From the NCBI RefSeq assembly GCF_900112595.1, contig NZ_FOMI01000001.1, forward strand, positions 124,001-188,000: a stretch of 64,000 bases of DNA, read 5' to 3'. Shown in pieces: positions 24,694 to 53,234 of the stretch (position 1 is its first letter; every line of letters begins with the position of its first letter). The position numbers and the translations under genes were made by a program. The notes below the pieces were generated by a model. The model saw only the letters and a list, made by a program, of their open reading frames with translations. It searched no databases and was not told where the DNA came from. The stretch comes from Algibacter pectinivorans. GTDB lineage: Bacteria > Bacteroidota > Bacteroidia > Flavobacteriales > Flavobacteriaceae.

Positions 24694-24824
24694 CACCCGC
24701 TGAGGCATTGCTGAGGAAAGCCCACAGCACGACGAAGGAAGTACGAGGACTTATAACCCTTCAACTCCGCTCAGGATAAACTCAAGCCCGCCCCCTGATT
24801 TCTCTTCGGGGGACACGCCCAAAC
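24694..24824 (+). repeat. Dispersed intergenic repeat, copy A
   Basis: This copy lies between the divergent rhomboid and rarA genes. The shared core GCATTGCTGAGGAAAGCCC, then CACGACGAAGGAAGT and CGAGGACTT, aligns with copies B-E. The right end, ACGCCCAAAC, also matches. It has an extra module (CTTCAACTCCGCTCAGGATA) shared only with copy C, and a tail hairpin (CCCCCTGA...TTCGGGGG, 24791-24812). No reading frame is preserved in it. Confidence 0.75.
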
Positions 24825-24879
24825 TAAAAAGAAAACCATTTCCATTGCTATGTAAATGCATAAAACGAAAATTTTACTT

Positions 24880-24887
24880 TAATTTTG
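24880..24887 (+). promoter_or_regulatory. Candidate -7 box of rarA
   Basis: TAATTTTG matches TAnnTTTG and ends 5 bases before the rarA ATG at 24893. A start site about 6-7 bases further would fall on or next to the start codon, so the message might be leaderless. No TTTG is seen at the -33 distance. Confidence 0.35.
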
Positions 24888-24892
24888 TAACC

Positions 24893-26176
24893 ATGAACGA
24901 CAATGCTCCTTTAGCCGAACGCTTGCGGCCAAAAACCTTAAAAGACTACGTAAGTCAAGCCCATTTGGTGGGCGAAGGTGGTGCATTATCGCAACATATA
25001 AAACAGGGTTTAATTCCGTCGATAATATTTTGGGGACCTCCAGGAACCGGAAAAACAACTTTAGCCAACATTATTGCTACCGAATCTGGCAGACCATTTT
25101 ACACACTTAGTGCCATAAATTCTGGGGTTAAAGATATTCGAGAGGTTATTGATAAAGCCAAACAAAGTGGTGGTTTATTTACCACAAAAAACCCAATTTT
25201 GTTTATTGACGAGATCCATAGGTTTAGTAAATCACAACAAGACTCGCTATTACAAGCCGTAGAAAAAGGATGGATTACACTAATTGGTGCCACTACCGAG
25301 AACCCAAGTTTCGAGGTTATACCCGCACTACTATCGCGCTGTCAGGTTTATATTTTAAATGCTTTCGATAAAACCGATTTAGAAACCCTTTTAAAACGCG
25401 CTATCGAAACCGATGTGCATATTTCTAAAAAAAATATAACCCTTAAGGAAACCAATGCCCTATTAAGGCTATCGGGTGGCGATGCTAGAAAATTACTAAA
25501 CATTTTCGAGCTTTTAGTAAATTCCTTTAGCACCAACAATATTGTTATAACCGACGAAGCTGTTTTAGAAAACATACAAAACAACACCGTACGTTACGAC
25601 AAAACGGGCGAACAGCATTACGATATTATTTCGGCGTTTATAAAATCCATTCGTGGTAGCGACCCAAATGGCGCCGTATATTGGTTAGCTCGAATGATTG
25701 AAGGTGGCGAAGATGTAAAATTTATTGCAAGACGTTTACTCATTTCGGCAAGCGAAGATATTGGTAACGCCAACCCAACGGCACTTGTAATTGCCAATAA
25801 CGCATTTCAGGCCGTTACTACCATTGGCTACCCAGAAGCCCGCATTATTTTAAGCCAGTGCGCCACTTATTTGGCATGTTCGCCAAAAAGTAACGCCTCA
25901 TACATGGCCATTGGTATGGCACAGCAATTAGTTAAACAAACCGGCGATTTAAGCGTGCCTATAGAAATTAGAAACGCTCCCACTAAACTAATGAAAGAGC
26001 TCGGGTATGGCGACAATTACAAATACGCACACAATTACGAAAATAATTTTGCCCCACAAGAATTTCTACCAGACGAAATTAAAAACCAAAAACTTTACGA
26101 CCCCGGAAATAATGCTCGCGAAAACGCACACAGAGAGTTTTTAAAACAACGCTGGAAAGACAAATACAACTATTAA
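24893..26176 (+). CDS. rarA: Replication-associated recombination protein A (AAA+ ATPase)
   Basis: Homologue of RarA/MgsA/Mgs1, an ATPase related to clamp loaders that acts at stalled replication forks. It is 427 aa from the ATG at 24893, chosen because the family starts (M)..PLAERLRPKTL. The Walker A is GPPGTGKTT, the Walker B LFIDEIHRFSK, and the arginine-finger region IPALLSRCQVY. The C-terminal helical part has GGEDVKFIARRLLISASEDIG and ends KQRWKDKYNY-like. It stands alone between two copies of the dispersed repeat. Confidence 0.95.
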   Translation: MNDNAPLAERLRPKTLKDYVSQAHLVGEGGALSQHIKQGLIPSIIFWGPPGTGKTTLANIIATESGRPFYTLSAINSGVKDIREVIDKAKQSGGLFTTKNPILFIDEIHRFSKSQQDSLLQAVEKGWITLIGATTENPSFEVIPALLSRCQVYILNAFDKTDLETLLKRAIETDVHISKKNITLKETNALLRLSGGDARKLLNIFELLVNSFSTNNIVITDEAVLENIQNNTVRYDKTGEQHYDIISAFIKSIRGSDPNGAVYWLARMIEGGEDVKFIARRLLISASEDIGNANPTALVIANNAFQAVTTIGYPEARIILSQCATYLACSPKSNASYMAIGMAQQLVKQTGDLSVPIEIRNAPTKLMKELGYGDNYKYAHNYENNFAPQEFLPDEIKNQKLYDPGNNARENAHREFLKQRWKDKYNY

Positions 26177-26180
26177 AATA

Positions 26181-26316
26181 TTTAGGGCGTTACCTTTTTC
26201 TCATACCTGCCAGGTAAAAAAACCTTGCAGGATCGCAAAAGGTCGGGCTTTCACTACTCGCTCCCTCCTTAGGTCGGGGAGCTTAAACAAACCGTTCAAT
26301 CCCTAACGCAAACCGC
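26181..26316 (-). repeat. Dispersed intergenic repeat, copy E (inverted)
   Basis: Read on the minus strand it has GCGTTAGGGATTG at one end and TAACGCCCTAAAT at the other. GCGTTA (26304-26309) and TAACGC (26187-26192) are reverse complements. The core CCCGACC..AAGGAGGGAGCGAG..AAAGCCCGACC matches copies A-D. Its CCCTAAAT end starts 4 bases after the rarA stop. An extra inverted repeat (ACCTGCCAGGT) sits near that end. It fills the gap between convergent rarA and the next gene. Confidence 0.75.
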
Positions 26317-26333
26317 GTTATTCAAAATAAACT

Positions 26334-27188
26334 TTAAAACTTTATATTGAGAGTTTCTTGCTCTAAATTACCACCAGCATAGTACTCAATAACCCAATCG
26401 TTACCTTTTTTATACACTATAGCGCTGCTACCCACAACCAAATACACATCTTTTAAATTCGTGTTTTTTATACGGTATACTACTTTTGGAGAACTATCAA
26501 CCAACTGAAAACCATTATCAATAACCTGCGCATACAATACGTTTGATGTGCCTTGTATTACAGCAACATCTTCAACAACTTTTTGCGCCACGGCCTTAGG
26601 TTTAGCAGGTGCTTTAGGAGCACTTACTGCTACCACTTTTTCCTCTTTTTCTTGCTTTAATAATTCTATTTCCTTTTTTAAATGCTGTATTTGCTCGGTA
26701 TTTTCTGGTTTTACTTGAGGCTGTGTTACTATATTTAATAAAGTTTCATTGGGCTGATACTTATAATTTAAGGCTTCTATAGATTTAAAAGCATCACGTA
26801 AAGCTAAATTATAGGCTGTCCTATATTCTTTTTCTCTACTTTCTCCCATTTTGGATGTATAAATTAGTTTATCCTTACAATCCTTAAGCGTTACAGCAAG
26901 CCTAGTTTTAAACATACTTGATTCCTTTACAACATCACAAAACAAAGCAAGACATCTGTTTATATTAAGTTCATCTGGATAATCAGCCCCTTCCATAATT
27001 GCCTTAAAACCGTATTTTTCAAACAAAAACTTAGTAAGAGAATTAAGTTGATATTGATCACTTTCTTTTAAAAAATCATATTTATTTGATACAATTACAT
27101 ATTTATAACTATTAATATTAGCCTGTGCAAATAAGGCATTAGCGAAAAGACATGTTATAATCCCTAAAGTTAAAAATTTAATTTTCAT
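26334..27188 (-). CDS. Secreted protein of unknown function with coiled coil
   Basis: A 284-aa protein with a clear signal peptide (MKIKFLTLGIITCLFANALFAQA). Residues about 25-150 form a mixed alpha/beta region without a family I recognise. Then comes a short coiled coil rich in Glu, Lys and Leu (QIQHLKKEIELLKQEKEE), an Ala/Pro/Lys linker, and a C-terminal beta-rich domain ending LEQETLNIKF. Its start overlaps the stop of the upstream gene by 4 bases (ATGA). It is the last of three coupled envelope genes. Likely periplasmic. Confidence 0.7.
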   Translation of the reverse strand: MKIKFLTLGIITCLFANALFAQANINSYKYVIVSNKYDFLKESDQYQLNSLTKFLFEKYGFKAIMEGADYPDELNINRCLALFCDVVKESSMFKTRLAVTLKDCKDKLIYTSKMGESREKEYRTAYNLALRDAFKSIEALNYKYQPNETLLNIVTQPQVKPENTEQIQHLKKEIELLKQEKEEKVVAVSAPKAPAKPKAVAQKVVEDVAVIQGTSNVLYAQVIDNGFQLVDSSPKVVYRIKNTNLKDVYLVVGSSAIVYKKGNDWVIEYYAGGNLEQETLNIKF

Positions 27189-28582
27189 TTATTATTAAAT
27201 ATATAGTTAAAACCTAATTGTAAAGATACACTTTGTGCATCGTAAATATTTTGATATTGCAAAAAATTATCGGCTAACACATAAAAATTAGCACCTCCTA
27301 TATGAGCAGATACTCCTAAACCTATATTATTGAATGTATATGAATCTATAGTATACGTAGCCTTCATTCTTAAGCCTTTAAAAAGTCTTCGGTAATAATA
27401 TGCTGTTAATGCTAACTGAGGGCTTTTAGGTCGTTTTATAGCATACAACTGCGCGCCTACCCTGTTCATATAAGGTTGTTCGTCTGCCAAACAATTACAC
27501 AACTTTAACCTTTTTTTACCAAAGGCATAATTTAAGGAAGCATTAAATTTAATTGGTCTCCAAGTCGTGTACGCATCAGCATTCTCGTTGGTATCAAATA
27601 AATCTTCAAACTCGTCTTCAATGGCACTATAAAACTCATCGGCAGTATCTCCTTCATTTGTATCAAAAAAAATAGGATCTACACCTTCAAAAATCAACTC
27701 GCCTTTAACTTCGTAATTTTCCACTTCTTTGCTATGTCTTATAAAACCAACATCTTGCAAACTCGCATCGAAAGTCCATTGCTTATCAAAATTATAGGTA
27801 ACCCCCATGTCGAAACCAAGTCCTAAATTCCCTCCTAATAATGTTCGTGTTACAACATCCTTTGGTTCAAAAGCATTGTCTTCACCATTTAAGGCATATC
27901 CAGAGGTTCTTAACGCCGTATCTAAATTAAAAATATGCCGAAAAAAATTATTTTCTCCTTCTACCGTGGTAAAATAGCCTTCGTTTTTATTTGAGGTAGC
28001 GTTAATTAAGCTGGAATAAATTTTACCTCTTGCACCATAGGTGAACTTCTCATTTACTTTTTTATTGTAGCCTACATGCCACACGGCGATTACCTCAGCC
28101 ATGGCACTAACAGTGCTAACATCGAACCGTTGGCCAATATTATTTTGATTACCTTCTAAGGCTAAAACCGCAATGTCTTTAGGGAAATAGGTTAAAAAAT
28201 CGAATTCTTGATACACTCCAAAACTTAAGTATTGGTTTTTATTGTAACTAGGCCCAATGGCAAAACCACCAGAAACTATTTCTAGTTGTTGATTGGCGGT
28301 AAAAAAATCACCTGGTTTGGCATCATAAACAACCCGCCTAAATTTTGTGCTAAAATCTACACCATCGGCAGCAAATAAATCGTAAATGGTTGCTCCAGAC
28401 GAACCTCCATTGGCATGAAAATGCGATAAAAACGGAATTCCAAAATAGGCCCTATTAGTTACCCTTCCGCCAGGGTTAGTAAGAAGAGATTGTGGAATCT
28501 CTGAAAACCCATACAATAGTTGCTTATTTTGGCTAAAACACACAAAGCTTATAAGTATTAATAATAGACTAATTGCTTTCAT
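27185..28582 (-). CDS. Outer membrane beta-barrel protein, DUF5723-like
   Basis: A 465-aa protein with a signal peptide (MKAISLLLILISFVCFSQ). Many alternating hydrophobic strands end in aromatic residues (YLSFGVYQEFDF, ALTAYYYRRLF, LQLGFNYIF). The GFSEIPQSLLTNPGG start of the mature part matches the DUF5723 pattern common in Flavobacteriaceae. An acidic insertion lies near residues 310-335. The gene overlaps its downstream neighbour by 4 bases and follows the upstream lipoprotein gene after 2 bases. The substrate or role is unknown. Confidence 0.75.
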   Translation of the reverse strand: MKAISLLLILISFVCFSQNKQLLYGFSEIPQSLLTNPGGRVTNRAYFGIPFLSHFHANGGSSGATIYDLFAADGVDFSTKFRRVVYDAKPGDFFTANQQLEIVSGGFAIGPSYNKNQYLSFGVYQEFDFLTYFPKDIAVLALEGNQNNIGQRFDVSTVSAMAEVIAVWHVGYNKKVNEKFTYGARGKIYSSLINATSNKNEGYFTTVEGENNFFRHIFNLDTALRTSGYALNGEDNAFEPKDVVTRTLLGGNLGLGFDMGVTYNFDKQWTFDASLQDVGFIRHSKEVENYEVKGELIFEGVDPIFFDTNEGDTADEFYSAIEDEFEDLFDTNENADAYTTWRPIKFNASLNYAFGKKRLKLCNCLADEQPYMNRVGAQLYAIKRPKSPQLALTAYYYRRLFKGLRMKATYTIDSYTFNNIGLGVSAHIGGANFYVLADNFLQYQNIYDAQSVSLQLGFNYIFNNK

Positions 28583-28584
28583 AA

Positions 28585-29142
28585 TTAGTCGTTAATATTA
28601 AAATAAAAAACACTTTTAGACTTCATATTTATTTGACCAAGTGTATTTTCATTAATAGCTTCCCCTTCTTGCACAATTAAAGTAAAACTCAATTTATTTG
28701 CATTCATTAAGACCCTTAATCTATTACCTTCAAATACTTCTGTATATTTTGTATAAACTTGAGAAGCGTCCGGGGATGCCAAAGCCTCAAAAGAAAAAGT
28801 ATGTACGGTTTGATCTAAATCGTCTAGAAGGTCTACCTGCAACTCGAAACTCCTTTTAATCGAGTTTAAAACATCAAATACAAATTCTACTTTAACAATG
28901 TTATTTCTAGTAAAACTATTATTAAACAGATCTAATTCAATAAAGTCTGAAAACTCACTCGACTCATTAGCTCCAGCAAAAAAATTAGTTGCAGGGGCAT
29001 CAAAAAAAAGCAAGCTATTTTCAATAACTGGCGATAACTCTAAGTCTTCAGCTTGGTTTAAATCGATTTCTTCTGTGCACGACCAGAAACACATTGCTAA
29101 ACTAAGTACTAAACCATATATTTTATATATTCTTCCCTCCAT
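28585..29142 (-). CDS. Lipoprotein of unknown function
   Basis: A 185-aa protein with a lipobox (FWSC, Cys22). The acidic mature part (TEEIDLNQAEDLELSP) is followed by beta-rich sequence ending SVFYFNIND. I do not recognise the family. It is the first of three genes packed within 2 bases or overlapping, with the barrel and coiled-coil proteins downstream. That suggests the three form one envelope complex or pathway. Confidence 0.65.
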   Translation of the reverse strand: MEGRIYKIYGLVLSLAMCFWSCTEEIDLNQAEDLELSPVIENSLLFFDAPATNFFAGANESSEFSDFIELDLFNNSFTRNNIVKVEFVFDVLNSIKRSFELQVDLLDDLDQTVHTFSFEALASPDASQVYTKYTEVFEGNRLRVLMNANKLSFTLIVQEGEAINENTLGQINMKSKSVFYFNIND

Positions 29143-29173
29143 CTTTTTATAAAACGAACTAATACTTAATCTA

Positions 29174-29863
29174 TTATAGATATTTTTTTAATTGTATTAA
29201 ATTATCTATTTGCTTAATGTTATTATCTAGCTTCAAATTATTAACATCAAAAAACACAACATCCATCCCTATATTTTTTGCGCCCATAATATCGGCCTCA
29301 TAACTGTCGCCTATCATCACACTTTTACTAGCATTGGTATTTGCTAAATTTAATGCATAATCAAATATTTTAGGGTTAGGTTTTTTTACACCGGCAATTT
29401 CCGAATTGGTAATAGTTTTAAAATAATGATTTATTTTGGAATGGCTCATTTTTTTATATTGAACCTCATCGAAACCATTAGTTATAATATGTAACGTATA
29501 ATTTAAACTTAAATAATCTAGGATCTCGAAGGTGTTTTCAAATAAATGATTAAAGCTTGATAAATGCGTTATATAATCGTCTGATAATTTATTTATTAAT
29601 CCAGTATCAACCTTAAACCCAACAGCCTCAAAGGTGTCGTTTAACCTCCCGTAACGTAAAGTATCCTTTTGTATTTTCTCTTCTCTGTACAGTTTCCAAT
29701 AGTTTAAATTAATGGGTTCGTAATGTTCCAAAAAATCTTCAACCGCTATATTTACATTATTGATTTTAAAAATTTTATCGAATGTTAATGCCGAATTTTT
29801 GTCAAAATCCCAAAGTGTATGGTCCAAATCAAAAAACACATCTGTTATTCCTTTAAGCTTCAT
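29174..29863 (-). CDS. YjjG-type noncanonical pyrimidine nucleotidase (HAD family)
   Basis: HAD-superfamily phosphatase that by family knowledge removes phosphate from noncanonical nucleoside monophosphates. It is 229 aa. Motif I is FFDLDHTLWDFDKNS, motif II is HIITNGFDEVQ, and motif III/IV is the KPNPKIFDYAL...VMIGDSYEADIMGAKNIGM region. It overlaps the upstream deacetylase-like gene by 11 bases, so translation is probably coupled. YjjG is favoured over phosphoglycolate phosphatase by the DHTLWDF motif. Confidence 0.85.
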   Translation of the reverse strand: MKLKGITDVFFDLDHTLWDFDKNSALTFDKIFKINNVNIAVEDFLEHYEPINLNYWKLYREEKIQKDTLRYGRLNDTFEAVGFKVDTGLINKLSDDYITHLSSFNHLFENTFEILDYLSLNYTLHIITNGFDEVQYKKMSHSKINHYFKTITNSEIAGVKKPNPKIFDYALNLANTNASKSVMIGDSYEADIMGAKNIGMDVVFFDVNNLKLDNNIKQIDNLIQLKKYL

Positions 29864-31154: not shown

Positions 31155-31156
31155 AA

Positions 31157-31218
31157 TTTCAGTTTGCAGTATTCAGTGTTCAGTAAGCGGTCTGCTGTCA
31201 TCGGTCTTCTGTCTTTGT
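31157..31218. repeat. Degenerate CAGT-rich tandem repeat
   Basis: The gap between radC and the deacetylase-like gene holds short related units: TTCAGTTTGCAGTATTCAGT, GTTCAGT, then two copies of the form CGGTCTnCTGTC. A related string (ACTGTAGACTGTAAGCTGTA) follows rlmB at 23868-23887. These may be remnants of a low-complexity dispersed element. No coding potential is seen. Confidence 0.4.
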
Positions 31219-31917: not shown

Positions 31918-32015
31918 TCGTTAAAGATAAATATTGTAAATTTCAGAAGCAATAGAATTATTAACAAAAATAATGAGATTCCTTTCTTTTAAGGCCTAAC
32001 AAAACAACAAAAGCA

Positions 32016-34716: not shown

Positions 34717-34847
34717 GAAACAAATATCAAACTAGAAAAATCAATTTCCAAATTATTTATGGATTAGTTGATTGGTGTTAAAAAATTGTACCGTAAACGT
34801 GTAAAAATGTAAAGATTTTTTATTGATAAACCTAAATTAGCAGGTAT

Positions 34848-34943
34848 GCCCGCGCTAGGGATTGCAGCGGATAGCCCACAGCCCGACAAAGGAGGGGCGA
34901 GGACTTGTAGCGAAAAGCCCGACCCTTGGGGTAGCGCCCAAAT
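34848..34943 (+). repeat. Dispersed intergenic repeat, copy B (most compact copy)
   Basis: The shortest and cleanest copy. GCGCTA (34852-34857) and TAGCGC (34932-34937) form a 6-bp closing stem. Two related half-units, ATTGCAGCGGATAGCCC (34861) and CTTGTAGCGAAAAGCCC (34904), are about 42 bases apart. GACAAAGGAGGGGCGAGG lies between them. The CGCCCAAAT end lies 1 base from the stop codon of the TPR gene, which is transcribed into it. Confidence 0.8.
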
Positions 34944-34944
34944 A

Positions 34945-35895
34945 TTACAAATTTAAAATTTTCTGTTTTTCGTCCTTAAAAGGTTTAATTTTTGGCAGTT
35001 GCGCTAGAGCCATATCGATGTGTTTTAAGGCCGTTTCTTTGTTGTTTTTATGCACGTTTATTTGTGCCAAACGGTAGTGCGCCCAAGCTTTTGGAACGCC
35101 ATCGGACTCTGAATAATTCTTGATATAGGTTTGTAAACATTGCTCGCCTTTTTGAAGCTCGATATTATACTCGGCAGCCACCTTACCTATTTGATAATGC
35201 AAGGCATTACGCTGGTGTTTTTGCTGCGCTTCCTCTATGGTTTTTATGGCTTTTTCGGGTTGTTTTTCCTTTTCGTAAAGCGTAGTTAACTTGTTAAAAC
35301 AGGTTAGCGAACCTCCTGTTTGAATGGCCATTTTATAATATTTTTCGGCTAAATCTGGTTCGTTATCATACTCGTAAACATAGCCTTTTGCCAAGTAACC
35401 ATCTACCTTCGATAGATTTTCTAGTTCTTGGGCATAGTGTAAGGATTTGCTCTTGCTGCCGCCAAAAATTCCGGGTAGCTGTATATACAGCTCGACTAAG
35501 GCCCAACGGGTTTCTATGTGGTTTTTATCTAATTCGGCCGCCGTGGTAAATGCGCTTTTTATATCGCCAATTAAACCAATGGCTTTTAGCTTATTCTGTA
35601 AGGCTTTCATACCTAAAACACCACCGTATTTGTAATGATAATTGGCTGTTTTGGGTTTAAGTTCTACCAGTTTTTTGTATTCGACTATGGCTTGATCCCA
35701 CTTTTTTTGATGGCCATAGGCATCGCCCAAAAGCTCTGTGGCTTTTAAATTACCAGGGTGGGTTTTAAGGTACGCTATAAGTTGATATTCTGCTTTTTCG
35801 AACTGCTTTTCCTGGATAAAACTGGAGATTTCTTCAAGTTTACCTTGAGAGAAACACACCATAGGAAGCACTAAAAGAAACAGAAATTTTCTCAT
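34945..35895 (-). CDS. Secreted tetratricopeptide repeat protein
   Basis: A 316-aa protein with a signal peptide (MRKFLFLLVLPMVCFSQ). At least six TPR-like helix pairs follow, for example LKATELLGDAYGHQKKWDQAI, AEKYYKMAIQTGGSL and AIKTIEEAQQKHQRN. TPR arrays act as protein-binding scaffolds, and this one is likely periplasmic. No catalytic domain is visible. It stands alone, 228 bases from mpl, with repeat copy B attached to its 3' end. Confidence 0.8.
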   Translation of the reverse strand: MRKFLFLLVLPMVCFSQGKLEEISSFIQEKQFEKAEYQLIAYLKTHPGNLKATELLGDAYGHQKKWDQAIVEYKKLVELKPKTANYHYKYGGVLGMKALQNKLKAIGLIGDIKSAFTTAAELDKNHIETRWALVELYIQLPGIFGGSKSKSLHYAQELENLSKVDGYLAKGYVYEYDNEPDLAEKYYKMAIQTGGSLTCFNKLTTLYEKEKQPEKAIKTIEEAQQKHQRNALHYQIGKVAAEYNIELQKGEQCLQTYIKNYSESDGVPKAWAHYRLAQINVHKNNKETALKHIDMALAQLPKIKPFKDEKQKILNL

Positions 35896-44566: not shown

Positions 44567-44630
44567 AACAGGTTCTTTTTTTTTATAGAATCAATCAAAA
44601 ATTATTCCAATGTTGAATATTATCTAAAAT

Positions 44631-44770
44631 ACTCGCGTCAGGGATTGCAGAGGAAAGCCCAAAGTCTGACGAAGGAAGTGCGAGGACTTGAAACCTTTCG
44701 ACTTAACTCAAGACAAGCTCCAAGCCCGACCCTTAGGGTAACCTGACTGCCGGCAGGCAAACACCCAAAT
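44631..44770 (+). repeat. Dispersed intergenic repeat, copy C
   Basis: It shares GGGATTGCAGAGGAAAGCCC, CTGACGAAGGAAGTGCGAGG and AAGCCCGACCCTTAGGGTAA with the other copies. GTCAGG (44637-44642) and CCTGAC (44742-44747) are reverse complements. It carries the same inserted module as copy A and a small palindrome CTGCCGGCAG (44747-44756) near the end. The CACCCAAAT end lies 4 bases from the obg stop, with obg transcribed into it. Confidence 0.75.
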
Positions 44771-44774
44771 TATT

Positions 44775-45773
44775 TTAATCGTTCAACATTTTCCATAAAA
44801 CATCTTTAAGTTCGGTAATGCCTTTTTGGGCCACAGAAGATATAAACATGTATGGAATTGGAAGTTCGTTATCGAGTTCTATTTTCATTTCTGCTTGTAA
44901 TTCATCGTCTAGCATATCGCATTTTGATATGGCGATAATACGCTCTTTATCCAGCATTTCTGGATTGTAACGACGAAGCTCATCTAACAGAATATCGTAT
45001 TGTTTTCTAATATCATCGGCATCAGCAGGAATCATAAACAACAATATAGAATTACGTTCTATATGGCGTAAAAAATAATGTCCTAGACCTTTACCTTCGG
45101 CTGCGCCCTCGATAATTCCAGGAATATCTGCCATAACAAAGGTTTGGAAATCGCGATATTTTACAATACCTAAATTGGGTTTTAGCGTTGTAAACTCGTA
45201 ATCGGCAATTTTAGGTTTTGCAGATGTAACTACAGATAGTAAGGTTGATTTTCCTGCATTTGGAAACCCTACAAGACCAACATCGGCAAGTACTTTTAAC
45301 TCCATGGTTACGTACTTTTCTTCCATGGGCATACCTGGTTGTGCGTAACGCGGTGTTTGGTTTGTAGAACTTTTAAAATGCCAGTTTCCTAGACCTCCTT
45401 TACCGCCTTGGGCTAATATAACTTCCTCGCCATCGAAAGTAATTTCGAAAAGAATATTATTAGTTTCTGTATCTCGAATTACTGTTCCTAATGGTACATC
45501 GATATAAACATCTTCGCCATCGGCTCCAAAACTACGACCACTACTACCATGCTCTCCGTGTCCTGCTCTACTATGTTTTTTAAACTTTAGGTGTAATAAA
45601 GTCCATAAATTTGATTTACCACGAACAATAACATGACCTCCACGACCACCATCGCCTCCATCTGGACCACCTTTTGTAATATATTTTTCGCGATGTAAAT
45701 GTGCAGAGCCTTTACCTCCGTTTCCGGAAGACACAAACATTTTTACGTAGTCTACAAAATTCCCTTCTGTCAT
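44775..45773 (-). CDS. obg: GTPase Obg/CgtA
   Basis: Essential ribosome-associated GTPase of 50S assembly and stringent-response control. It is 332 aa. The Gly-rich N-terminal Obg fold ([26 protein letters not shown] region) precedes a G domain with GFPNAGKST (G1), [17 protein letters not shown] (G3) and SKCD (G4). No long C-terminal extension is present, the usual state in this phylum. Repeat copy C follows its stop after 4 bases. Confidence 0.96.
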
Positions 45774-45882
45774 AGTCCTTTATTTAAATTGAAAATAAAA
45801 AATTAAAGTATGCCACAACTCGTGCTATAGCTCCAATTAATTTTAAACCTTCTGTAATGATTTAAGTTTATTTTAAAAATAC

Positions 45883-45919: not shown

Positions 45920-45928
45920 AATATTAAG

Positions 45929-47058: not shown

Positions 47059-47079
47059 GGGAAATAATTTTTAAAGTCG

Positions 47080-47087
47080 CAAAGATA
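47080..47087 (-). promoter_or_regulatory. Candidate -7 box of hpt-adk
   Basis: On the minus strand this reads TATCTTTG, matching TAnnTTTG, 22 bases before the hpt-adk ATG at 47058. No clear TTTG at the -33 distance. Confidence 0.4.
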
Positions 47088-47220
47088 ATCAATATACTTA
47101 ATACATCTAGTTTTTAAGCAAAATTGACCCATAAAAAGAATAAAATAGGTGTATTCCTCCTAAATTTAGCAATCCTATTTTTTTGATTTATGATTTCTCG
47201 ACTAATTTAAGATTTAAGTG

Positions 47221-47228
47221 TATTTTTG
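47221..47228 (+). promoter_or_regulatory. Candidate -7 box of purKE
   Basis: TATTTTTG matches TAnnTTTG. It ends 33 bases before the purK ATG at 47262. It lies divergent to the hpt-adk box about 135 bases away, so purine salvage and de novo genes share one intergenic control region. Confidence 0.4.
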
Positions 47229-47261
47229 CGTAACTTTAATAGCGTATTAGCAGTAAAAATC

Positions 47262-48419
47262 ATGACAAATTATTTTTCTTCAAATTTTAAACTTGGTATT
47301 CTTGGTGGTGGTCAATTAGGTAAAATGCTACTTTACAACACTAGAAAGTTTGACATTTTCACGGCCGTTCTAGATTCTAGCAACGAAGCGCCTTCTAAGA
47401 TGGCCTGTAACGAATTTCAGCTGGGAGATTTAATGGATTATGATGCTGTTTATAATTTTGGTAAACAAGTAGATATTTTAACTATCGAAATTGAAAACGT
47501 AAATGTTGACGCCCTTGAAACTCTAGAGAAAGAGGGTGTAAAAGTGTATCCAGCATCAAAAACATTACGTCAAATTCAAAATAAGGCGAAACAAAAATTA
47601 TTTTATCGCGATCAAAACATTCCAACATCGGATTTCACAAGGTTTGCTTACCTATCGGAAATAGAAGATGCTATTATAAATGGCGGTTTACACTTTCCTT
47701 TTGTTTGGAAGGCTGCTCAATTTGGTTACGATGGTAATGGTGTAAAAGTGGTTAGAACATTAGAAGACCTTAAAAGGTTACCAAAAGGCGAATGTATTGC
47801 CGAAGAACTAATCCCTTTTAAAAATGAATTAGCCGTTATTGTCGCAAGAAGTGCATCGGGCGAAATAAAAACCTACCCGGTTGTTGAAATGGAATTTCAT
47901 CCAGAAGCCAATCAAGTTGAGTATGTAATTTGTCCGGCTAGAATTCCTGATAGTGTAGCTAAAAAAGCTGAAGAAGTAGCCTTAAAAACATCAAAAGCAT
48001 TTAATCATGTTGGCTTATTAGCCGTTGAAATGTTTCAAACAGAAAACGACGATATTTTAGTTAATGAAGTAGCACCCAGACCTCATAATTCTGGGCACCA
48101 AACTATAGAAGCAAGTTATACGTCGCAGTTTGAACAGCATATTAGAGCTATTTTAGATTTACCTTTAGGAAGAACCGATAGTAAAGTTGGCGGAGTTATG
48201 GTAAACCTAGTTGGCGCAGAAGGTTATACAGGTAACGTGGTTTATCAAAACATTGAAAACATCATGAAGCTAGATGGTGTAACCCCACATATTTACGGTA
48301 AAAAAGAAACACGACCATTTAGAAAAATGGGACATGTAACTATTGTAAATGAAGATTTAAATGAGGCAAGACGGGTTGCAGAATTAGTAAAGAAAAGTAT
48401 AAAAGTTATAAGCGAATAA
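47262..48419 (+). CDS. purK: 5-(carboxyamino)imidazole ribonucleotide synthase
   Basis: ATP-grasp enzyme that carboxylates AIR to N5-CAIR with bicarbonate in purine synthesis. It is 385 aa from the ATG at 47262, chosen because the family starts just before FKLGILGGGQLGKML; a non-ATG start would lie 12 codons upstream. ATP-grasp signatures include FPFVWKAAQFGYDGNGV and NEVAPRPHNSGHQTIEA. It is followed by purE after 68 bases and is divergent from the hpt-adk fusion. Confidence 0.96.
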   Translation: MTNYFSSNFKLGILGGGQLGKMLLYNTRKFDIFTAVLDSSNEAPSKMACNEFQLGDLMDYDAVYNFGKQVDILTIEIENVNVDALETLEKEGVKVYPASKTLRQIQNKAKQKLFYRDQNIPTSDFTRFAYLSEIEDAIINGGLHFPFVWKAAQFGYDGNGVKVVRTLEDLKRLPKGECIAEELIPFKNELAVIVARSASGEIKTYPVVEMEFHPEANQVEYVICPARIPDSVAKKAEEVALKTSKAFNHVGLLAVEMFQTENDDILVNEVAPRPHNSGHQTIEASYTSQFEQHIRAILDLPLGRTDSKVGGVMVNLVGAEGYTGNVVYQNIENIMKLDGVTPHIYGKKETRPFRKMGHVTIVNEDLNEARRVAELVKKSIKVISE

Positions 48420-48487
48420 ACATCAATAAAAACAAAATCCTGATTAGTGAACTTTAGGTTTTTGAAATTTAAAAAATTGTAATTTAT

Positions 48488-48967
48488 ATGAAAGTAGGAG
48501 TTATTATGGGAAGTAAAAGTGATCTTCCTGTTATGCAAGAAGCCATAGACATCTTAAATGGTTTTGATATTGAAGTTGAAGTAGATATCGTTTCGGCACA
48601 CCGTACACCCGAAAAACTATTCGATTACGGTAAACATGCACACACGAGAGGTTTTGCTGTTGTAATTGCTGGTGCTGGTGGTGCTGCGCACTTGCCTGGT
48701 ATGATTGCTTCTTTATCACCATTACCTGTAATAGGTGTGCCTGTAAAAAGCAGCAATTCTATAGATGGTTGGGACTCTGTACTTTCTATTTTACAAATGC
48801 CAGGTGGTGTGCCTGTAGCTACAGTAGCTTTAAACGGCGCGAAAAATGCCGGAATTCTGGCAGCTCAAATTATTGGAAGTAGCGACAAATGTGTGCTAGA
48901 TAAAATAATTGCTTACAAGGAAGGGCTAAAAATTAAAGTAAACGAATCTGCTAAAGATTTACAATAA
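48488..48967 (+). CDS. purE: N5-carboxyaminoimidazole ribonucleotide mutase
   Basis: Class I PurE that converts N5-CAIR to CAIR, the step after PurK. It is 159 aa. Motifs include MGSKSDLPVMQEA, VSAHRTPEKLFDY and IAGAGGAAHLPGMIASL. PurK and PurE next to each other show the two-step bacterial route. A strong terminator follows 2 bases after the stop. Confidence 0.97.
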   Translation: MKVGVIMGSKSDLPVMQEAIDILNGFDIEVEVDIVSAHRTPEKLFDYGKHAHTRGFAVVIAGAGGAAHLPGMIASLSPLPVIGVPVKSSNSIDGWDSVLSILQMPGGVPVATVALNGAKNAGILAAQIIGSSDKCVLDKIIAYKEGLKIKVNESAKDLQ

Positions 48968-48969
48968 AA

Positions 48970-48997
48970 AAAAGCCCTGAAGTTATTCAGGGCTTTT
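48970..48997 (+). terminator. Terminator of purKE
   Basis: AAAAGCCCTGAA (48970-48981), loop GTTA, TTCAGGGCTTTT (48986-48997). Perfect 12-bp stem with a GC core and T-run. Right after the purE stop. Confidence 0.92.
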
Positions 48998-49061
48998 CAG
49001 CTATTAACAAATAATTCTCATGAGTTAGTCACTCTTCGTATTATTGGCTGCAAAAATATAC

Positions 49062-49091
49062 AATATTTACTATGCGTACATAGTAAATATT
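49062..49091. promoter_or_regulatory. 13-bp inverted repeat upstream of the M3 peptidase gene
   Basis: AATATTTACTATG (49062-49074) and CATAGTAAATATT (49079-49091) are exact reverse complements with a 4-base spacer. It ends 24 bases before the peptidase ATG. It could be a repressor operator or a leader hairpin; only weak T-richness follows on the plus strand, and the purE terminator is already present upstream. I see no cognate regulator beside it. Confidence 0.5.
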
Positions 49092-49115
49092 ATTTTTAAC
49101 ACATTCATTAAAGAA

Positions 49116-51149
49116 ATGATAAAAAAAACTCTACTTACACCGTTTAAAACTAAATATAATACGCCTCCTTTCAGAATAATTGAAACTTCTGATTACCTAC
49201 CAACAATAAAAGAGGCTATAAAAATGGCTAAAAATGAAATTGATGCCATTGTAAACAATCCTGAAAGTCCAACCTTCGAGAACACTATTGTAGCCTTAGA
49301 TTTTTCTGGTGAGCAGTTGGATAGAATTTCTAGTATTTTCTTTAATTTAAATTCGGCCGAAACAAATGAAGACATTCAAAAAATAGCTCAAGAAGTATCG
49401 CCTTTACTATCAGAATTCAGTAACGACATTACTTTAAATGAAGATTTATTTAAGCGTGTTAAGGCGGTTTATGATGCTAAATCAGAGTTAGAATTAACGG
49501 TTGAGCAAACCACACTTCTAGATAAAAAATATAAAGGTTTCTCTAGAAACGGAGCCAACTTACCAGAAGACAAAAAAGATAAACTTAGGGACATTGATAA
49601 AAAACTAAGTCAGTTAAGTTTAAAATTTGGCGAAAATGTTTTAGCTGAAACCAACAAGTTTGAAATGCTTATTACAAACGAAGCCGATTTATCTGGACTA
49701 CCAGAAGGCACTATAGAAGCTGCAAAACAGTTAGCAGAATCTAAAGATAAAGAAGGTTGGCTATTTACTTTAGACTATCCGAGTTACATACCATTTGTAA
49801 CCTACGCAGATAATAGAGAACTAAGAAAAAAAATAACCTTAGCAGCAGGTAGTAAAGCGTTTAAAAACGATGCATTAGATAATCAAGATAACGTATTACA
49901 AATTACAAAACTTAGGCACGAGCGTGCTAATTTATTGGGTTACAAAACCTACGCACACTTTGTTTTAGAAGAGCGTATGGCCCAAACGCCTGAAACAGTT
50001 CTTAATTTTTCGAATGAATTGCTTGAAAAAGCAAAACCAGCAGCAGATCGAGAATTTAAAAACCTTGAAAATTTTGCTAAAGAACTCGATAATATTGATT
50101 GCTTAGAAAAATGGGATGGCTCATATTATTCCGAAAAGCTAAAGCAGAAACTTTACAGTTTAGATGACGAAAAACTTAAACCGTACTTTAAATTAGAAAA
50201 CGTTATTAATGGTGCGTTTACAATAGCTAATAAATTATTCGATTTAAAATTTGAAGAAATTGATACTATAGATAAATACCATGACGATGTTTTAACATAT
50301 AAAGTTACAGACACTAATGGCAACTTTATTTCTGTTTTTTATGCCGATTTCTTCCCTAGACCAGGAAAACGAAATGGCGCGTGGATGACCTCATACAAAC
50401 CACAATACATCTTAAATGGTGAAAACAGCAGACCGCACGTTTCTATTGTTTGCAACTTTACAAAACCAACTAAAAGCAAACCTTCATTATTAACTTTTAA
50501 TGAGGTTACAACTTTGTTTCACGAATTCGGACATGCATTACATGGCATGTTGGCTAACACCACCTACCCTAGTCTTTCTGGTACAAGTGTATTTTGGGAT
50601 TTTGTAGAGTTACCAAGCCAGGTTATGGAAAATTGGTGTTTCGAGAAAGAAGCCCTAGAGCTTTTTGCTACGCATTACGAAACCGGAGAAGTTATCCCAA
50701 TGGAATTGGTAGAAAAAATAAAAGAATCGGCTACGTTTCATGAAGGTATGCAAACCTTGCGTCAATTAAGTTTTGGTTTATTAGATATGAGTTGGCATGG
50801 TCAAGACCCAACCCAAATTACAGATGTAAAAGCTTTTGAGACCGAAGTATTCAAAAACACATCGTTATATCCTACAACTAAAGAAACCTGTATGAGTACT
50901 GCATTTTCTCATATTTTTCAAGGTGGATATTCCTCGGGCTATTACAGCTACAAATGGGCGGAAGTTTTAGATGCTGATGCTTTTGAGTATTTTAAGGAAG
51001 AAGGCATTTTCAATAAAACAGTTGCTACAAAATTTAAAGACAACGTATTAAGCCAAGGCGGAACCGAAAACCCAATGACGCTTTACAAACGTTTTAGAGG
51101 CCAAGAGCCAAAACCTGAAGCGTTATTAAGACGCGCAGGATTAATATAA
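49116..51149 (+). CDS. M3 family oligopeptidase / peptidyl-dipeptidase Dcp
   Basis: Zinc metallopeptidase that degrades short peptides. It is 677 aa from the ATG at 49116 (MIKKTLLTPFKTKYNTPPF); the frame is open 24 codons upstream but that part is not like the family. The zinc site is HEFGH at residues 469-473 (TLFHEFGHALHGML), with the third ligand Glu downstream in SGTSVFWDFVELPSQVMENW. No signal peptide is visible, so it is cytoplasmic. Length suits Dcp. A terminator follows. Confidence 0.93.
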   Translation: MIKKTLLTPFKTKYNTPPFRIIETSDYLPTIKEAIKMAKNEIDAIVNNPESPTFENTIVALDFSGEQLDRISSIFFNLNSAETNEDIQKIAQEVSPLLSEFSNDITLNEDLFKRVKAVYDAKSELELTVEQTTLLDKKYKGFSRNGANLPEDKKDKLRDIDKKLSQLSLKFGENVLAETNKFEMLITNEADLSGLPEGTIEAAKQLAESKDKEGWLFTLDYPSYIPFVTYADNRELRKKITLAAGSKAFKNDALDNQDNVLQITKLRHERANLLGYKTYAHFVLEERMAQTPETVLNFSNELLEKAKPAADREFKNLENFAKELDNIDCLEKWDGSYYSEKLKQKLYSLDDEKLKPYFKLENVINGAFTIANKLFDLKFEEIDTIDKYHDDVLTYKVTDTNGNFISVFYADFFPRPGKRNGAWMTSYKPQYILNGENSRPHVSIVCNFTKPTKSKPSLLTFNEVTTLFHEFGHALHGMLANTTYPSLSGTSVFWDFVELPSQVMENWCFEKEALELFATHYETGEVIPMELVEKIKESATFHEGMQTLRQLSFGLLDMSWHGQDPTQITDVKAFETEVFKNTSLYPTTKETCMSTAFSHIFQGGYSSGYYSYKWAEVLDADAFEYFKEEGIFNKTVATKFKDNVLSQGGTENPMTLYKRFRGQEPKPEALLRRAGLI

Positions 51150-51162
51150 ATTATTACAAAGA

Positions 51163-51194
51163 AAAGCTGAATCTTAATGATCAGCTTTCTTTTT
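51163..51194 (+). terminator. Terminator after the M3 peptidase
   Basis: AAAGCTGA (51163-51170) pairs with TCAGCTTT (51181-51188) across a 10-base loop and is followed by CTTTTT. It lies just upstream of the regulator's operator. Confidence 0.75.
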
Positions 51195-51200
51195 AGAATA

Positions 51201-51224
51201 AACTTTCAATAATTACTGAAAGTT
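51201..51224. promoter_or_regulatory. 24-bp palindromic operator, copy 1 (before gbsR-like gene)
   Basis: AACTTTCA-N8-TGAAAGTT, where the centre itself contains TAATTA, so 23 of 24 positions fit a palindrome around the axis apart from one A/C pair. It overlaps the -33 position relative to the TATATTTG box at 51238. A dimeric repressor bound here would block that promoter. Copy 2 (51767-51790) is its exact reverse complement. Confidence 0.7.
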
Positions 51225-51237
51225 TAAAAAGTTTTAC

Positions 51238-51245
51238 TATATTTG
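51238..51245 (+). promoter_or_regulatory. -7 box of the gbsR-like gene
   Basis: TATATTTG matches TAnnTTTG and ends 3 bases before the ATG at 51249. The expected start site would lie on or inside the first codons, so the transcript may be leaderless. The palindrome occupies its -33 region. Confidence 0.5.
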
Positions 51246-51248
51246 GAC

Positions 51249-51752
51249 ATGGAATATCAAGAAGCAAAAGAAAAATTTATTAGCACATGGGGAAGTTTAG
51301 GCACACTATGGGGCATAAACAAGGCTATGGCTCAAATTCAATCGTTGCTTTTTATTTCTACAAAAGCGCTATCCATGGAAGAAATCATGGAAGAGTTAAA
51401 AATTTCTAGAGGAAACACAAGCATGAATTTACGCCAATTAATGGATTGGGGTATTGTAACTAAAGCGTTAATTCCTGGTGAGCGCAAAGAGTATTTTACC
51501 ACAGAAAAAGATGTTCAAGAACTTGCAAGACATATTGCAAAAGAACGTAGCAGACGAGAAATTAAACCGGTAATTAAAATTTTAAAAGATGTATCGTCCA
51601 TAAAAGATGATGGCACCGAAAAAACCAAGGAACTTATTAAGCAAACAAAAGCTTTACACGATTTGGCCGAAACAGCAGATGCTATGATGAACAAAATTGT
51701 TAATCAAGAACAAACTTGGATTACTAAATCTTTAATGAAATTGATAAAATAA
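51249..51752 (+). CDS. GbsR/MarR-like transcriptional regulator
   Basis: A 167-aa winged-helix protein, likely a dimeric repressor. The ATG at 51249 was chosen because the frame upstream has only a TTG at 51243 and the family starts near MEYQEAKEKFISTWGSLGTLWG. The recognition part is LSMEEIMEELKISRGNTSMNLRQLMDWGIVTKA with a wing at GERKEYFTT. The C-terminal half is a long helix for dimerisation. Identical palindromes lie before and after the gene, indicating autoregulation and control of the next two genes. The inducer is unknown. Confidence 0.85.
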   Translation: MEYQEAKEKFISTWGSLGTLWGINKAMAQIQSLLFISTKALSMEEIMEELKISRGNTSMNLRQLMDWGIVTKALIPGERKEYFTTEKDVQELARHIAKERSRREIKPVIKILKDVSSIKDDGTEKTKELIKQTKALHDLAETADAMMNKIVNQEQTWITKSLMKLIK

Positions 51753-51766
51753 AAAAATTTAAAACA

Positions 51767-51790
51767 AACTTTCAGTAATTATTGAAAGTT
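51767..51790. promoter_or_regulatory. 24-bp palindromic operator, copy 2 (between regulator and membrane gene)
   Basis: AACTTTCA-N8-TGAAAGTT, the exact reverse complement of copy 1 over all 24 bases. It lies 14 bases after the regulator stop and 26 bases before the membrane-protein gene. No clean TAnnTTTG box follows, so it may act as a second binding site, a roadblock, or control a non-consensus promoter. Confidence 0.7.
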
Positions 51791-51816
51791 CAATAATAAT
51801 AAAATTTTAAGAAATT

Positions 51817-52164
51817 ATGAGAAATTTACATTATACAAATTGTTTCTTTTATAGCTTAACCCTAATACCATACATAACTATATACTATTTTATATACGGC
51901 ATGTACGCCCAATTAATACTTGGTGTTACACAAATAATAATGGCTTTAGTTTTATTATTTTTTGGTAAAAAACTAAATAGAGAAATTAAAAAACACCTAA
52001 AAAATTATTGGATACTAACCCTAGGAATCTTACTACTAATATTTCTTTTTACTCAAGCAAATTCAAACACCAATGAAATTATACTAGTTCTATTTGTTTT
52101 TATTCTCCCAATGGGTATTGCAAGCTACTTTTTATACATAACCCACTTAATACGTAAACAATGA
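51817..52164 (+). CDS. Small membrane protein of unknown function
   Basis: A 115-aa protein with four predicted membrane segments (about residues 9-32, 34-50, 64-80, 88-108) and a basic loop KKLNREIKKHLKN between the second and third. I do not recognise a family. Its stop overlaps the next gene's start (ATGA, 4 bases), so translation is coupled to the TIGR01777 protein. It lies directly after operator copy 2. Confidence 0.65.
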   Translation: MRNLHYTNCFFYSLTLIPYITIYYFIYGMYAQLILGVTQIIMALVLLFFGKKLNREIKKHLKNYWILTLGILLLIFLFTQANSNTNEIILVLFVFILPMGIASYFLYITHLIRKQ

Positions 52165-53060
52165 GAACTATAATAATTGCCGGAGGAAGCGGATTTCTTG
52201 GTCAGGTTCTAGAAAACTATTTTACCAAAAAGAATTATTTGGTAAAAACATTAACAAGAAACCCTAAAAAAGAAAATGATATTTTTTGGACAGCTAAACA
52301 TTTGGATGCATGGACTAAGCACCTTGAGAGCGCAGAAATTTTAATTAACCTTACAGGAAAATCTGTGGATTGTAGATACACCAATAAAAACAAAAAATTA
52401 ATTCTAGACTCTAGAATTAAGACTACCAAGCTTCTTGATTTGGCCATTAGAGCATGCAAAAACCCTCCAAAAATTTGGATAAATTCTTCAACCGCTACAA
52501 TTTACAAAGATTCTTATACTAAAGAAATGACCGAAGCATACGGCGAAATTGGAGACGACTTTTCGATGAATGTTGCCAAATCTTGGGAAGCAGCGTTTAA
52601 CCAAATTAACACACCTAAAACCAGAAAAATAACATTACGCACATCGATTGTTTTAGGTAAAAACGGAGGTGCTTTAATACCACTTAAAAGGTTAACAATC
52701 CTTGGCCTAGGAGGAAAACAAGGCTCTGGAAAACAGAGAGTAAGTTGGATACATGAGTTGGATTTTTGTAGAGCCATAAACTTTTTAATTAAGCATAAAA
52801 ATCTTGATGGTATTTTTAATTTATGTGTACCAAAACCAACGAATAACAAAACATTAATGAAATCGCTTAGACGTATATTAAAAATCCCGTTTGGAATTCG
52901 TCACCCCATCCCTGTACTTAAACTTGGCGCAAAACTTATTGGCACTGAAACTGAATTGGTATTGAAAAGTAGAAATGTTATTCCTGAACGTCTTTTAAAT
53001 AATAATTTTAAATTTAGCTTTACACGTATTGAACATGCATTATCCCATTTGGCTACCTAA
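52161..53060 (+). CDS. TIGR01777 family epimerase-like protein
   Basis: A 299-aa extended short-chain dehydrogenase-like protein. The N-terminal nucleotide-binding loop is IIIAGGSGFLGQVL. The family mark LINLTGKSVDCRYTNKNK is present, then INSSTATIYKD and LRTSIVLGKNGGAL. The C-terminal DUF1731-like part ends with a segment containing PERLLNNNFKF. The reaction is unknown. It is third in the regulator operon with 4-base overlap to the membrane gene. Confidence 0.9.
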   Translation: MRTIIIAGGSGFLGQVLENYFTKKNYLVKTLTRNPKKENDIFWTAKHLDAWTKHLESAEILINLTGKSVDCRYTNKNKKLILDSRIKTTKLLDLAIRACKNPPKIWINSSTATIYKDSYTKEMTEAYGEIGDDFSMNVAKSWEAAFNQINTPKTRKITLRTSIVLGKNGGALIPLKRLTILGLGGKQGSGKQRVSWIHELDFCRAINFLIKHKNLDGIFNLCVPKPTNNKTLMKSLRRILKIPFGIRHPIPVLKLGAKLIGTETELVLKSRNVIPERLLNNNFKFSFTRIEHALSHLAT

Positions 53061-53120
53061 TTAGGAAACCTTAAAAAAGGAGAATGCAGTTGGATAATTA
53101 ACTACTTCCAACGGCAAACT

Positions 53121-53234
53121 TACCCGCGCCATGGATAGTAGCGGATAACCCACAACCCGACGAAGGAGGTGAGAGCACTTGTAGCGTATAGCTTGCTTCC
53201 TTTCTTTTGGCGGGGGCAGGGGTAGCACCATAAT
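53121..53234 (+). repeat. Dispersed intergenic repeat, copy D
   Basis: It shares CCCGCGC..GGATAGTAGCGGATAACCC, AACCCGACGAAGGAGGTGAG and CACTTGTAGCGTATAGC with the other copies and ends GGGGTAGCACCATAAT. It is more diverged at the right side, where a G-rich stretch replaces the GACCC block. It lies between the TIGR01777 gene and the sigma factor gene, both plus strand, 60 bases from the first. Confidence 0.65.

What the first reader, a model, noticed from the sequence alone, without database searches (positions are those of the whole stretch)
24694..53234. Five-copy dispersed intergenic repeat with two internal half-units
Copies at 24694-24824 (A), 26181-26316 (E, inverted), 34848-34943 (B), 44631-44770 (C) and 53121-53234 (D) share the core AGGGATTGCAGnGGAnAGCCC, CCGACgAAGGAgG, GCGAGgACTTG and AAGCCCGACCC, and mostly a GCCCAAAT end. 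Copy B shows two related half-units about 42 bases apart (ATTGCAGCGGATAGCCC and CTTGTAGCGAAAAGCCC), so the element looks like an internal duplication. The copies are diverged but not random, are G+C-richer than their surroundings, and occur about once per 6-10 kb from 24 to 54 kb. None lies in the ribosomal cluster. I do not recognise a named family; a REP- or MITE-like element or a structured RNA are both possible.
Basis: seen in the sequence. Interest (0 to 1): 0.72.

Follow-up and report, generated by a model that had tools for sequence, protein, structure and literature searches.

The report
Module-swapping relatives of Flavo-1 repeats
The five segments are real copies of a folded DNA repeat, present well over a hundred times in this marine Algibacter genome and related to a supposed small RNA called Flavo-1; its middle part differs between species at the same place while its ends stay the same.

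Summary
The five copies are real and belong to a large interspersed family: 126 distinct copies found so far in this Algibacter genome. Copy B resembles Rfam RF01705 "Flavo-1" below its cut-off (27.4 bits, cut-off 42); the copy at the same site in a sister species passes it (50.6 bits). Covariation over 107 copies is strong (21 of 24 pairs), and G·U far exceeds A·C (48 v 7), so the drawn strand folds as a single strand. Conserved ends (GCGYTAGGGATTG ... GAAAGCCCGACC ... TARCGCCCAAA) enclose an exchangeable module. Sites A, B and E are shared by most Algibacter genomes examined, with modules differing between species; site B recurs across genera with at least 7 module changes. The 3' end often lies within 15 nt of the stop codon of a gene on the other strand (35 of 108; null mean 9.9). 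Copies at 16 G000/G004 sites differ by 4%, flanks by 11%. I read it as a BOX/REP-like non-autonomous element with stable addresses and swappable modules rather than an sRNA gene. Its mobiliser is unknown; a RAYT (Y1 transposase) is not shown and not always present.

The parts
24691..24826 (+). Copy A, module type I, decayed ends, nested TTCAACTCCGCTCAGGATAAACTC insert
   Evidence: R1 model 28.7 bits; A-C shuffle 0/1000; same site in A. amylolyticus
26181..26316 (-). Copy E, module type III (CGGTTTGTTTAAGCTCCCCGACCTAAGGAGGGAGCGAGTAGTG), between two convergent genes
   Evidence: two-ended scan score 58; sister species hold module I or II at this site
34844..34945 (+). Copy B, intact module type I, reference copy
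   Evidence: R1 115.7 bits, but it is one of the 24 copies the model was built from; Flavo-1 27.4 bits, below cut-off 42
34852..34857 (+). P1 5' strand GCGCTA (pairs with 34932-34937)
   Evidence: 2 to 28 double-changed cells in four of its six pairs; seen without the model
34932..34937 (+). P1 3' strand TAGCGC, followed by the conserved tail CCCAAAT
34858..34860 (+). P2 5' strand GGG (pairs with CCC 34918-34920); next pairs 34862-34863 with 34915-34916
   Evidence: 52 and 41 double-changed copies of 122
34873..34905 (+). exchangeable apical module, type I (AGCCCACAGCCCGACAAAGGAGGGGCGAGGACT)
   Evidence: type II found at the same site in relatives, other types in other genera
34923..34931 (+). 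P4 small hairpin CCC..GGG; its loop and the TAAC/GCCC border accept nested palindromes in other copies
44627..44772 (+). Copy C, module type I with two nested repeats
   Evidence: R1 45.3 bits; two-ended scan 40
53118..53236 (+). Copy D, module type I, 3' end decayed
   Evidence: R1 53.4 bits; D-B shuffle 0/1000
34945..35895 (-). TPR-repeat gene whose stop codon lies 3 nt from the CCCAA end of copy B
44775..45773 (-). Obg-family GTPase gene whose stop codon lies 6 nt from the CCCAA end of copy C
24845..26176 (+). RarA/MgsA-type AAA ATPase gene whose stop codon lies 6 nt from the 3' end of copy E

Best explanation
The copies belong to a family of non-autonomous, interspersed, structured elements, scattered over the phylum, of which Rfam's Flavo-1 is one module type. 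SHOWN: about 95 nt (longer with inserts) form one fold on one strand: a closing helix P1, an inner helix with two symmetric GNA/GNA loops, an apical arm, and a small hairpin P4 just before the P1 3' strand, ending in CCCAAA. The ends are conserved from Algibacter to Bacteroides plasmids; the apical arm is one of at least three different modules, or hosts other palindromic repeats. Sites are old and shared within and beyond the genus, while modules differ at the same site. In Algibacter the 3' end tends to abut stop codons of genes on the other strand. INFERRED: the element spread by copying of a single-stranded (RNA or DNA) form whose two ends a trans-acting machinery recognises; insertions survive mostly at gene ends, where they disturb least and may act as a 3' boundary, as REP and BOX elements do; copies later exchange modules through their shared ends, by conversion between copies or precise re-insertion at the same address. 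No mobiliser was found.
For: Copy number: 128 model hits of 150 scored candidates in the own genome; 126 distinct scan copies; 132 model hits of 150 scored in a sister. Fold: (RNAalifold finds the same helices unprompted), and a second set of 26 distinct copies from a distant genome, plasmids and one viral contig (9 pairs double-changed, 0/500 shuffles; alignment fitted to the model). Single strand: G-U 48 v A-C 7, p=6.5e-9. Same-site module change. Stop-codon position: (35 of 108; null mean 9.9, maximum 20 in 5000). Convergent over divergent gaps, Fisher p=2.8e-4 (occupied gaps from the whole set, unoccupied ones from 384 kb). Constraint in place: 70 of 1655 element sites differ between G000 and G004 against 170 of 1542 flank sites, p=2.8e-13.
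Against: No clean recent insertion was seen. All 18 G000 copies with both flanks alignable have a counterpart in G004 (17 by model hit, E by gap length); of 22 G004 copies 16 have a model counterpart, 3 do not (one internally deleted, one with module III, one with flanks 5.7 kb apart) and 3 lack a flank. So movement is inferred from copy number and patchiness. No target-site duplication was seen by eye and no transposase-bearing copy was met. The stop-codon and orientation rule was not reproduced in the distant genome G183 (8 of 20 copies face a stop; 4 of 20 within 15 nt). Constraint in place could equally mean a host function. Homogenisation of modules within a genome is suggestive only (type I similarity 0.68 within a genome v 0.53 at the same site in other genomes, 10 same-site pairs; permutation p=0.18 without G000). 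Y1 transposase and Flavo-1 counts do correlate over 60 genomes.
Confidence: 0.6

Rival explanations
1. A structured RNA with a cellular role (sRNA or mRNA 3'-end regulator) in many copies, kept by selection at each site; dispersal is incidental.
For: Compensatory changes and G-U tolerance on one strand; in-place divergence 4% v 11%; retention of sites across the genus; Rfam files Flavo-1 as sRNA.
Against: In tandem gene gaps the folding strand is antisense to the genes 52 v 24, so neighbours' transcripts mostly carry the wrong strand; upstream there is only a weak, fuzzy motif (about TTRGCRRATA), not promoter-like to my eye (no promoter scan was run); modules differ at the same site; in F. psychrophilum Flavo-1 hits lay indistinctly sense or antisense of transcripts and many outside them (PMC9723704, passages).
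Confidence: 0.2
2. Recurrent independent insertion into the same hot spots (behind stop codons), rather than inheritance plus module exchange, explains different modules at the same site.
For: Same or near-same 3' junction (CCCAAATATTA or a close variant, the last three letters being the stop codon) at site B in many genera; presence needs 8 changes on the tree; a strong positional rule exists in Algibacter.
Against: 19 of 19 scored site-B copies in one orientation; presence clusters on the tree (8 changes v 15.7 shuffled, 0/500), 18 of the 19 within one clade with SH-aLRT 99; the flank runs unbroken up to P1 across a module switch between two close species.
Confidence: 0.15
3. A REP/REPIN-type element moved by a RAYT (Y1, IS200-like) transposase.
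For: Palindromic, intergenic, single-strand fold; Y1 matches and Flavo-1 counts correlate over 60 genomes (Spearman 0.49, and 0.45 without the own genus); the genome has two Y1 matches, with the nearest copies 2.2 kb and 7.3 kb away.
Against: Within the family outside the genus the correlation is 0.24, not significant; 6 of 18 genomes rich in Flavo-1 have no Y1 match; of the two own matches one is a Y1 domain fused to a haem-synthesis enzyme and the other lies in a 1287-aa open frame that I did not resolve.
Confidence: 0.04
4. Chance similarity of GC-rich intergenic DNA.
For: None beyond the weak E alignments.
Against:: E-values down to 8e-36 for copies other than the query, and covariation.
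Confidence: 0.01

Closest known systems
Flavo-1 RNA (Rfam RF01705; Weinberg et al. 2010, PMC2864571, table row seen in a passage)
   Same: Same inner helix with GNA/GNA loops and the same half-unit letters (cmscan alignment); module II copies of the same family score 43.9-62.9 bits, above its cut-off of 42; one of them lies at the same site as copy B in a sister species.
   Different: Window copies (types I and III) fall below the cut-off. The Rfam consensus (76 positions) has no counterpart of the closing helix P1, hairpin P4 and CCCAAA tail, and the family is filed as an sRNA gene.
BOX elements of Streptococcus (PMC3049150, passages read)
   Same: Works alike: interspersed, folded, conserved outer modules with a variable middle, over-represented between convergent genes, nested insertions, slow new insertion.
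   Different: Different phylum; no sequence relation was tested; BOX varies by the number of boxB repeats, here different modules stand in for each other; BOX has a proposed IS partner, here none.
REP/REPIN elements of enterobacteria and pseudomonads
   Same: Palindromic intergenic repeats, a share of them within 15 nt of stop codons (PMC12306157, passages: 446 of 4,072 by its own tool, and 260 of 496 reported by Liang 2015, which I did not read).
   Different: Longer, multi-helix fold; no clear RAYT link; one particular end of the element faces the stop codon.
MITEs
   Same: Short, non-autonomous, high copy, inverted ends (P1).
   Different: No target duplication seen and no partner transposase found; the inverted ends are only 6 bp and vary by compensation.

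Membership tests
Flavo-1 (RF01705) | Rfam gathering score of 42 bits | tested here: not met
   Window: no hit at gathering; copy B 27.4 bits. Sister-site copy L100:12977 scores 50.6.
Flavo-1 (RF01705) | Consensus inner helix with conserved GAU..GNAGCGG / UGUAGCGGAAAGC core | tested here: met
   cmscan alignment of copy B over model positions 1-76; covariation.
Flavo-1 (RF01705) | Functions as a small RNA gene | not testable with these tools
   No expression data; the literature passage gives no clue to function.
BOX-like interspersed element (kind, not family) | Conserved outer modules with variable middle in many dispersed copies | tested here: met
BOX-like interspersed element (kind, not family) | Enrichment between convergent genes | tested here: met
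   32 convergent v 18 divergent copies against 10 v 31 unoccupied gaps, p=2.8e-4
BOX (Streptococcus family) | Sequence homology to boxA/boxC | not tested
   No BOX sequence was compared.
REP/REPIN | Linked RAYT (Y1) transposase in the genome | tested here: not met
   G007: 132 model hits, no Y1 match, 99% complete
MITE | Target-site duplication at the ends | tested here: inconclusive
   No duplication visible in flanks by eye or logo; no clean empty site to prove it
MITE | Ends shared with an autonomous transposon | not tested
   No dedicated search for a transposase-bearing copy was made

The most novel reading that the evidence does not exclude
A class of genomic element whose address and ends are inherited but whose central module is replaced by a dedicated, end-guided mechanism (templated by single-stranded DNA or RNA), so that unlinked copies in one genome share modules while orthologous sites in sister species do not.
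Probability: 0.15. Interest if true: 0.8.

Novelty: new variant of a known kind. Interest (0 to 1): 0.55.

Why it matters
Flavo-1 has been listed since 2010 as a candidate structured RNA and is counted among the abundant sRNAs (PMC2864571 and PMC9029176, passages). If it is one module of a BOX-like element, sRNA catalogues of the Bacteroidota over-count genes, the Rfam model needs its outer helices and sister modules, and the open question what Flavo-1 does becomes testable: look for the protein that reads the two conserved ends, and watch modules change at fixed sites in close strains. It also gives natural markers for recombination between dispersed short repeats.

Tried and rejected
Internal duplication as the origin of the half-units: not needed (helix strands). 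RAYT link. Captured unique payloads: the roughly 85-nt inserts in some module II copies looked unique, but side by side many resemble, by eye, diverged copies of another repeat (CAGATTGCCACGTC..CTCCTCGCAATGACG). Replication-strand preference: no consistent pattern with GC skew in G000, G004 or G007. Reading-frame rule at the stop codon: distances in multiples of 3 dominated in 77 non-independent copies but not clearly among the 36 close ones at independent sites (18, 11, 7 by remainder 0, 2, 1). attC-like integron sites were considered from memory and dropped because the end motifs run in the opposite order (not tested). The 2020-aa neighbour was first taken for SprA, and my notes call it so; Pfam shows an alpha-2-macroglobulin family protein. 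Concerted evolution of modules: not significant. Two G000/G004 sites change module type; one (c119083/G004 258490) has an extra 1.1 kb beside it in G004 and is not clean.
Full report
OBSERVATION. Seven of ten pairwise alignments are never equalled in 1000 dinucleotide shuffles; the weak ones all involve copy E (A-E 383, E-D 80, E-C 38 of 1000). Copy B used as a DNA query against the window's own genome (G000, 3.65 Mb, 21 contigs) gave 40 scored matches of 123 candidates, itself included, the weakest at E=2e-19.

FOLD. Twenty-four copies without large inserts were aligned (A2; of the 30 shown, 1 was dropped for an odd 3' end and 5 for length). RNAalifold, unprompted, gives the helices that I had read by eye: P1 GCGYTA:TARCGC, P2 GGG:CCC, a UU:AA step, a two-pair core, AAGCCC:GGACTT with a C-A mismatch, an apical hairpin, and P4 CCC..GGG. 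On 107 copies 94.7% of cells pair, 21 of 24 pairs have double changes, and no shuffle of 500 reaches this; sliding the partner by 1-3 columns gives 23-52% (this alignment was fitted to the model and so leans towards it). A count that does not use the model, on 122 copies found by their ends alone (score >= 40 of the 126), shows pairing beyond shuffles in most varying pairs of P1, P2 and the core, and G·U 48 against A·C 7 (p=6.5e-9). The excess of G·U identifies the drawn strand as the one that folds. RNA or single-stranded DNA cannot be told apart here.

IDENTITY. Rfam at gathering finds nothing in the window. A relaxed search of 201 bases around copy B gives Flavo-1, RF01705, 27.4 bits, E=4e-4, cut-off 42; the same kind of search over copies A and E gave nothing. 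In seven other loci of G000 and relatives, 7 Flavo-1 matches exceed the cut-off (43.9-62.9 bits); these are copies with the module GGCATCCTTTT..AAAAGATATA or a close form. One of them (L100:12977, G006) sits at the same site as copy B, between the same Mur-ligase-like and TPR genes. The window copies are thus relatives of Flavo-1 that fail Rfam's own membership cut-off.

COPIES AND DISTRIBUTION. The model R1 finds 128 matches among 150 scored candidates of 681 in G000 and 132 among 150 of 562 in G007; a scan for the two ends finds 126 usable copies at distinct places in 107 fetched pieces of G000, 3 more being dropped at edges. By a text rule 68 are module I, 26 II, 23 III and 9 unassigned, several of the 9 being I by eye. 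Type I copies with the same ends occur on Bacteroidales plasmids (75 and 78 records of 72,556 with two queries; model scores 67-84 bits in 6 of 6 plasmid loci put into), on one IMG/VR contig (one exact pattern), and on no phage record (one query).

STABLE SITES, CHANGING MODULES. Of 22 G000 elements tested against G004, 18 have both flanks alignable; 17 of these have a counterpart found by the model and E one of nearly equal gap length; 4 had no alignable flank pair. Of 22 G004 elements, 16 have a model counterpart in G000, 3 do not and 3 lack a flank. At c177107 G000 holds module III and G004 module II between the same ends and flanks. Across the genus (nine genomes) site E holds module III in G000 and G004, II in G006, G003 and G007, I in G008 and G009, and a truncated III-like remnant by eye in G001 (G002 lacked a flank). 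Site B holds I in five genomes (G000, G004, G008, G009, G001) and II in three (G006, G003, G007), and is empty in G002. Site A has scan hits in 4 of 8 and degenerate copies by eye in the other 4. Site C has copies in narrow gaps in 4 of 9, in wider gaps in 3, a remnant in 1 and none in 1. Site D could be read in 2 genomes only, by eye. Site B in 53 genomes (window plus 52 of the 53 loci with both flanking genes, out of 80 loci fetched): 19 occupied, counting 4 degenerate copies judged by eye, all in one orientation and most ending in CCCAAATATTA or a close variant whose last letters are the stop codon; the tree needs 8 presence changes (shuffled mean 15.7, 0 of 500 as low) and 7 module changes (a quick tree with many open forks). 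Where modules agree, 16 orthologous G000/G004 copies differ at 70 of 1655 positions against 170 of 1542 in the flanks (the two sites with switched modules and all gap columns were left out).

POSITION. In G000 the gene on the 3' side faces the element with its stop codon in 84 of 126 copies (genes are long open frames, not a gene finder's calls). For the 108 copies lying inside a gap, 35 have the 3' end within 15 nt of that stop; random placement in the same gaps gives 9.9 on average and never more than 20 in 5000. In tandem gaps the folding strand is antisense to the genes 52 times, sense 24 (p=0.0018). On plasmid pBF9343 and a plasmid of B. ovatus a resolvase gene likewise ends at the 3' end of the element match; on pBUN2 a LuxR-type gene on the same strand ends at the 5' end instead. 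The distant genome G183 does not show the bias: 8 of 20 facing, 4 of 20 within 15 nt.

MECHANISM. Dispersal by copying follows from the number of similar copies at unrelated sites and from the patchy distribution; the fold on one strand suggests a single-stranded stage that is recognised. The ends, more than the module, are what is conserved from Algibacter to Bacteroides plasmids, so the ends are the likely recognition part and the apical arm is free. This also fits where foreign palindromes are nested: in the P4 loop, at the TAAC/GCCC border, and, in copies A and C, just before the 3' AAGCCCGAC. Exchange through the ends (conversion or precise re-insertion) is the simplest account of changing modules at fixed sites. 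These steps are inference. The RAYT hypothesis was tested by count: correlated over all 60 genomes (0.49; 0.45 without the own genus) but not within the family outside the genus (0.24, p=0.22), with strong counter-examples.

KNOWN KINDS. BOX elements of pneumococcus are the closest kind: modular, folded, over-represented between convergent genes, nested in one another, slow to insert (PMC3049150, passages). REP elements share the closeness to stop codons (PMC12306157, passages). Searches of the held library for Flavo-1, RF01705 and Flavobacteria with interspersed repeats listed no paper whose title or shown abstract describes Flavo-1 as an interspersed or module-swapping element; I read passages of five papers only, and that library omits most subscription journals.

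One search confirmed that the 126 copies are distinct places and gave the distances to the Y1 matches.

Noticed in passing
L002:1471-3039 (G000:C12:202672-204240): An open frame of 522 aa joins an N-terminal Y1 (IS200-like) transposase domain to coproporphyrinogen III oxidase (Pfam PF01797 25.3 bits, PF01218 450.7 bits). Y1 matches in similar-length frames occur in G009 (542 aa), G008 (523) and G001 (493), so the fusion may be conserved; the other genomes' frames were not read.
   Followed up: partly
L001 (G000:C17:190029-190346): The better Y1 match of the genome lies in a 1287-aa open frame; frames of 1074-1302 aa hold a Y1 match in G001, G002, G003 and G004 too. A Flavo-1-like copy lies 2.2 kb away.
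   Followed up: no
window 51201-51225 and 51766-51790: A perfect 25-nt inverted repeat (AACTTTCAATAATTACTGAAAGTTT) brackets a 169-aa open frame.
   Followed up: no
copies A and C in the window; L026, L028, L089: TTCGACTNCGCTCAG-type and CCTGCCGGCAGG-type palindromes are nested at fixed points inside the elements (15 and 14 of 126 copies by a text rule).
   Followed up: partly
L120-L142: Module II copies in 8 of 10 Algibacter genomes carry inserts of up to about 85 nt, many resembling by eye another repeat (CAGATTGCCACGTC..CTCCTCGCAATGACG).
   Followed up: partly
L324, L327, L329 (plasmids p5482, one of B. ovatus, pBF9343): Type I elements sit near ArdC-like genes on conjugative Bacteroides plasmids; a resolvase gene ends at the element on two of them.
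   Followed up: partly
L323 (IMG/VR contig of 36,416 bases): A type I element on a contig classed as viral (model score 85.1 bits).
   Followed up: partly
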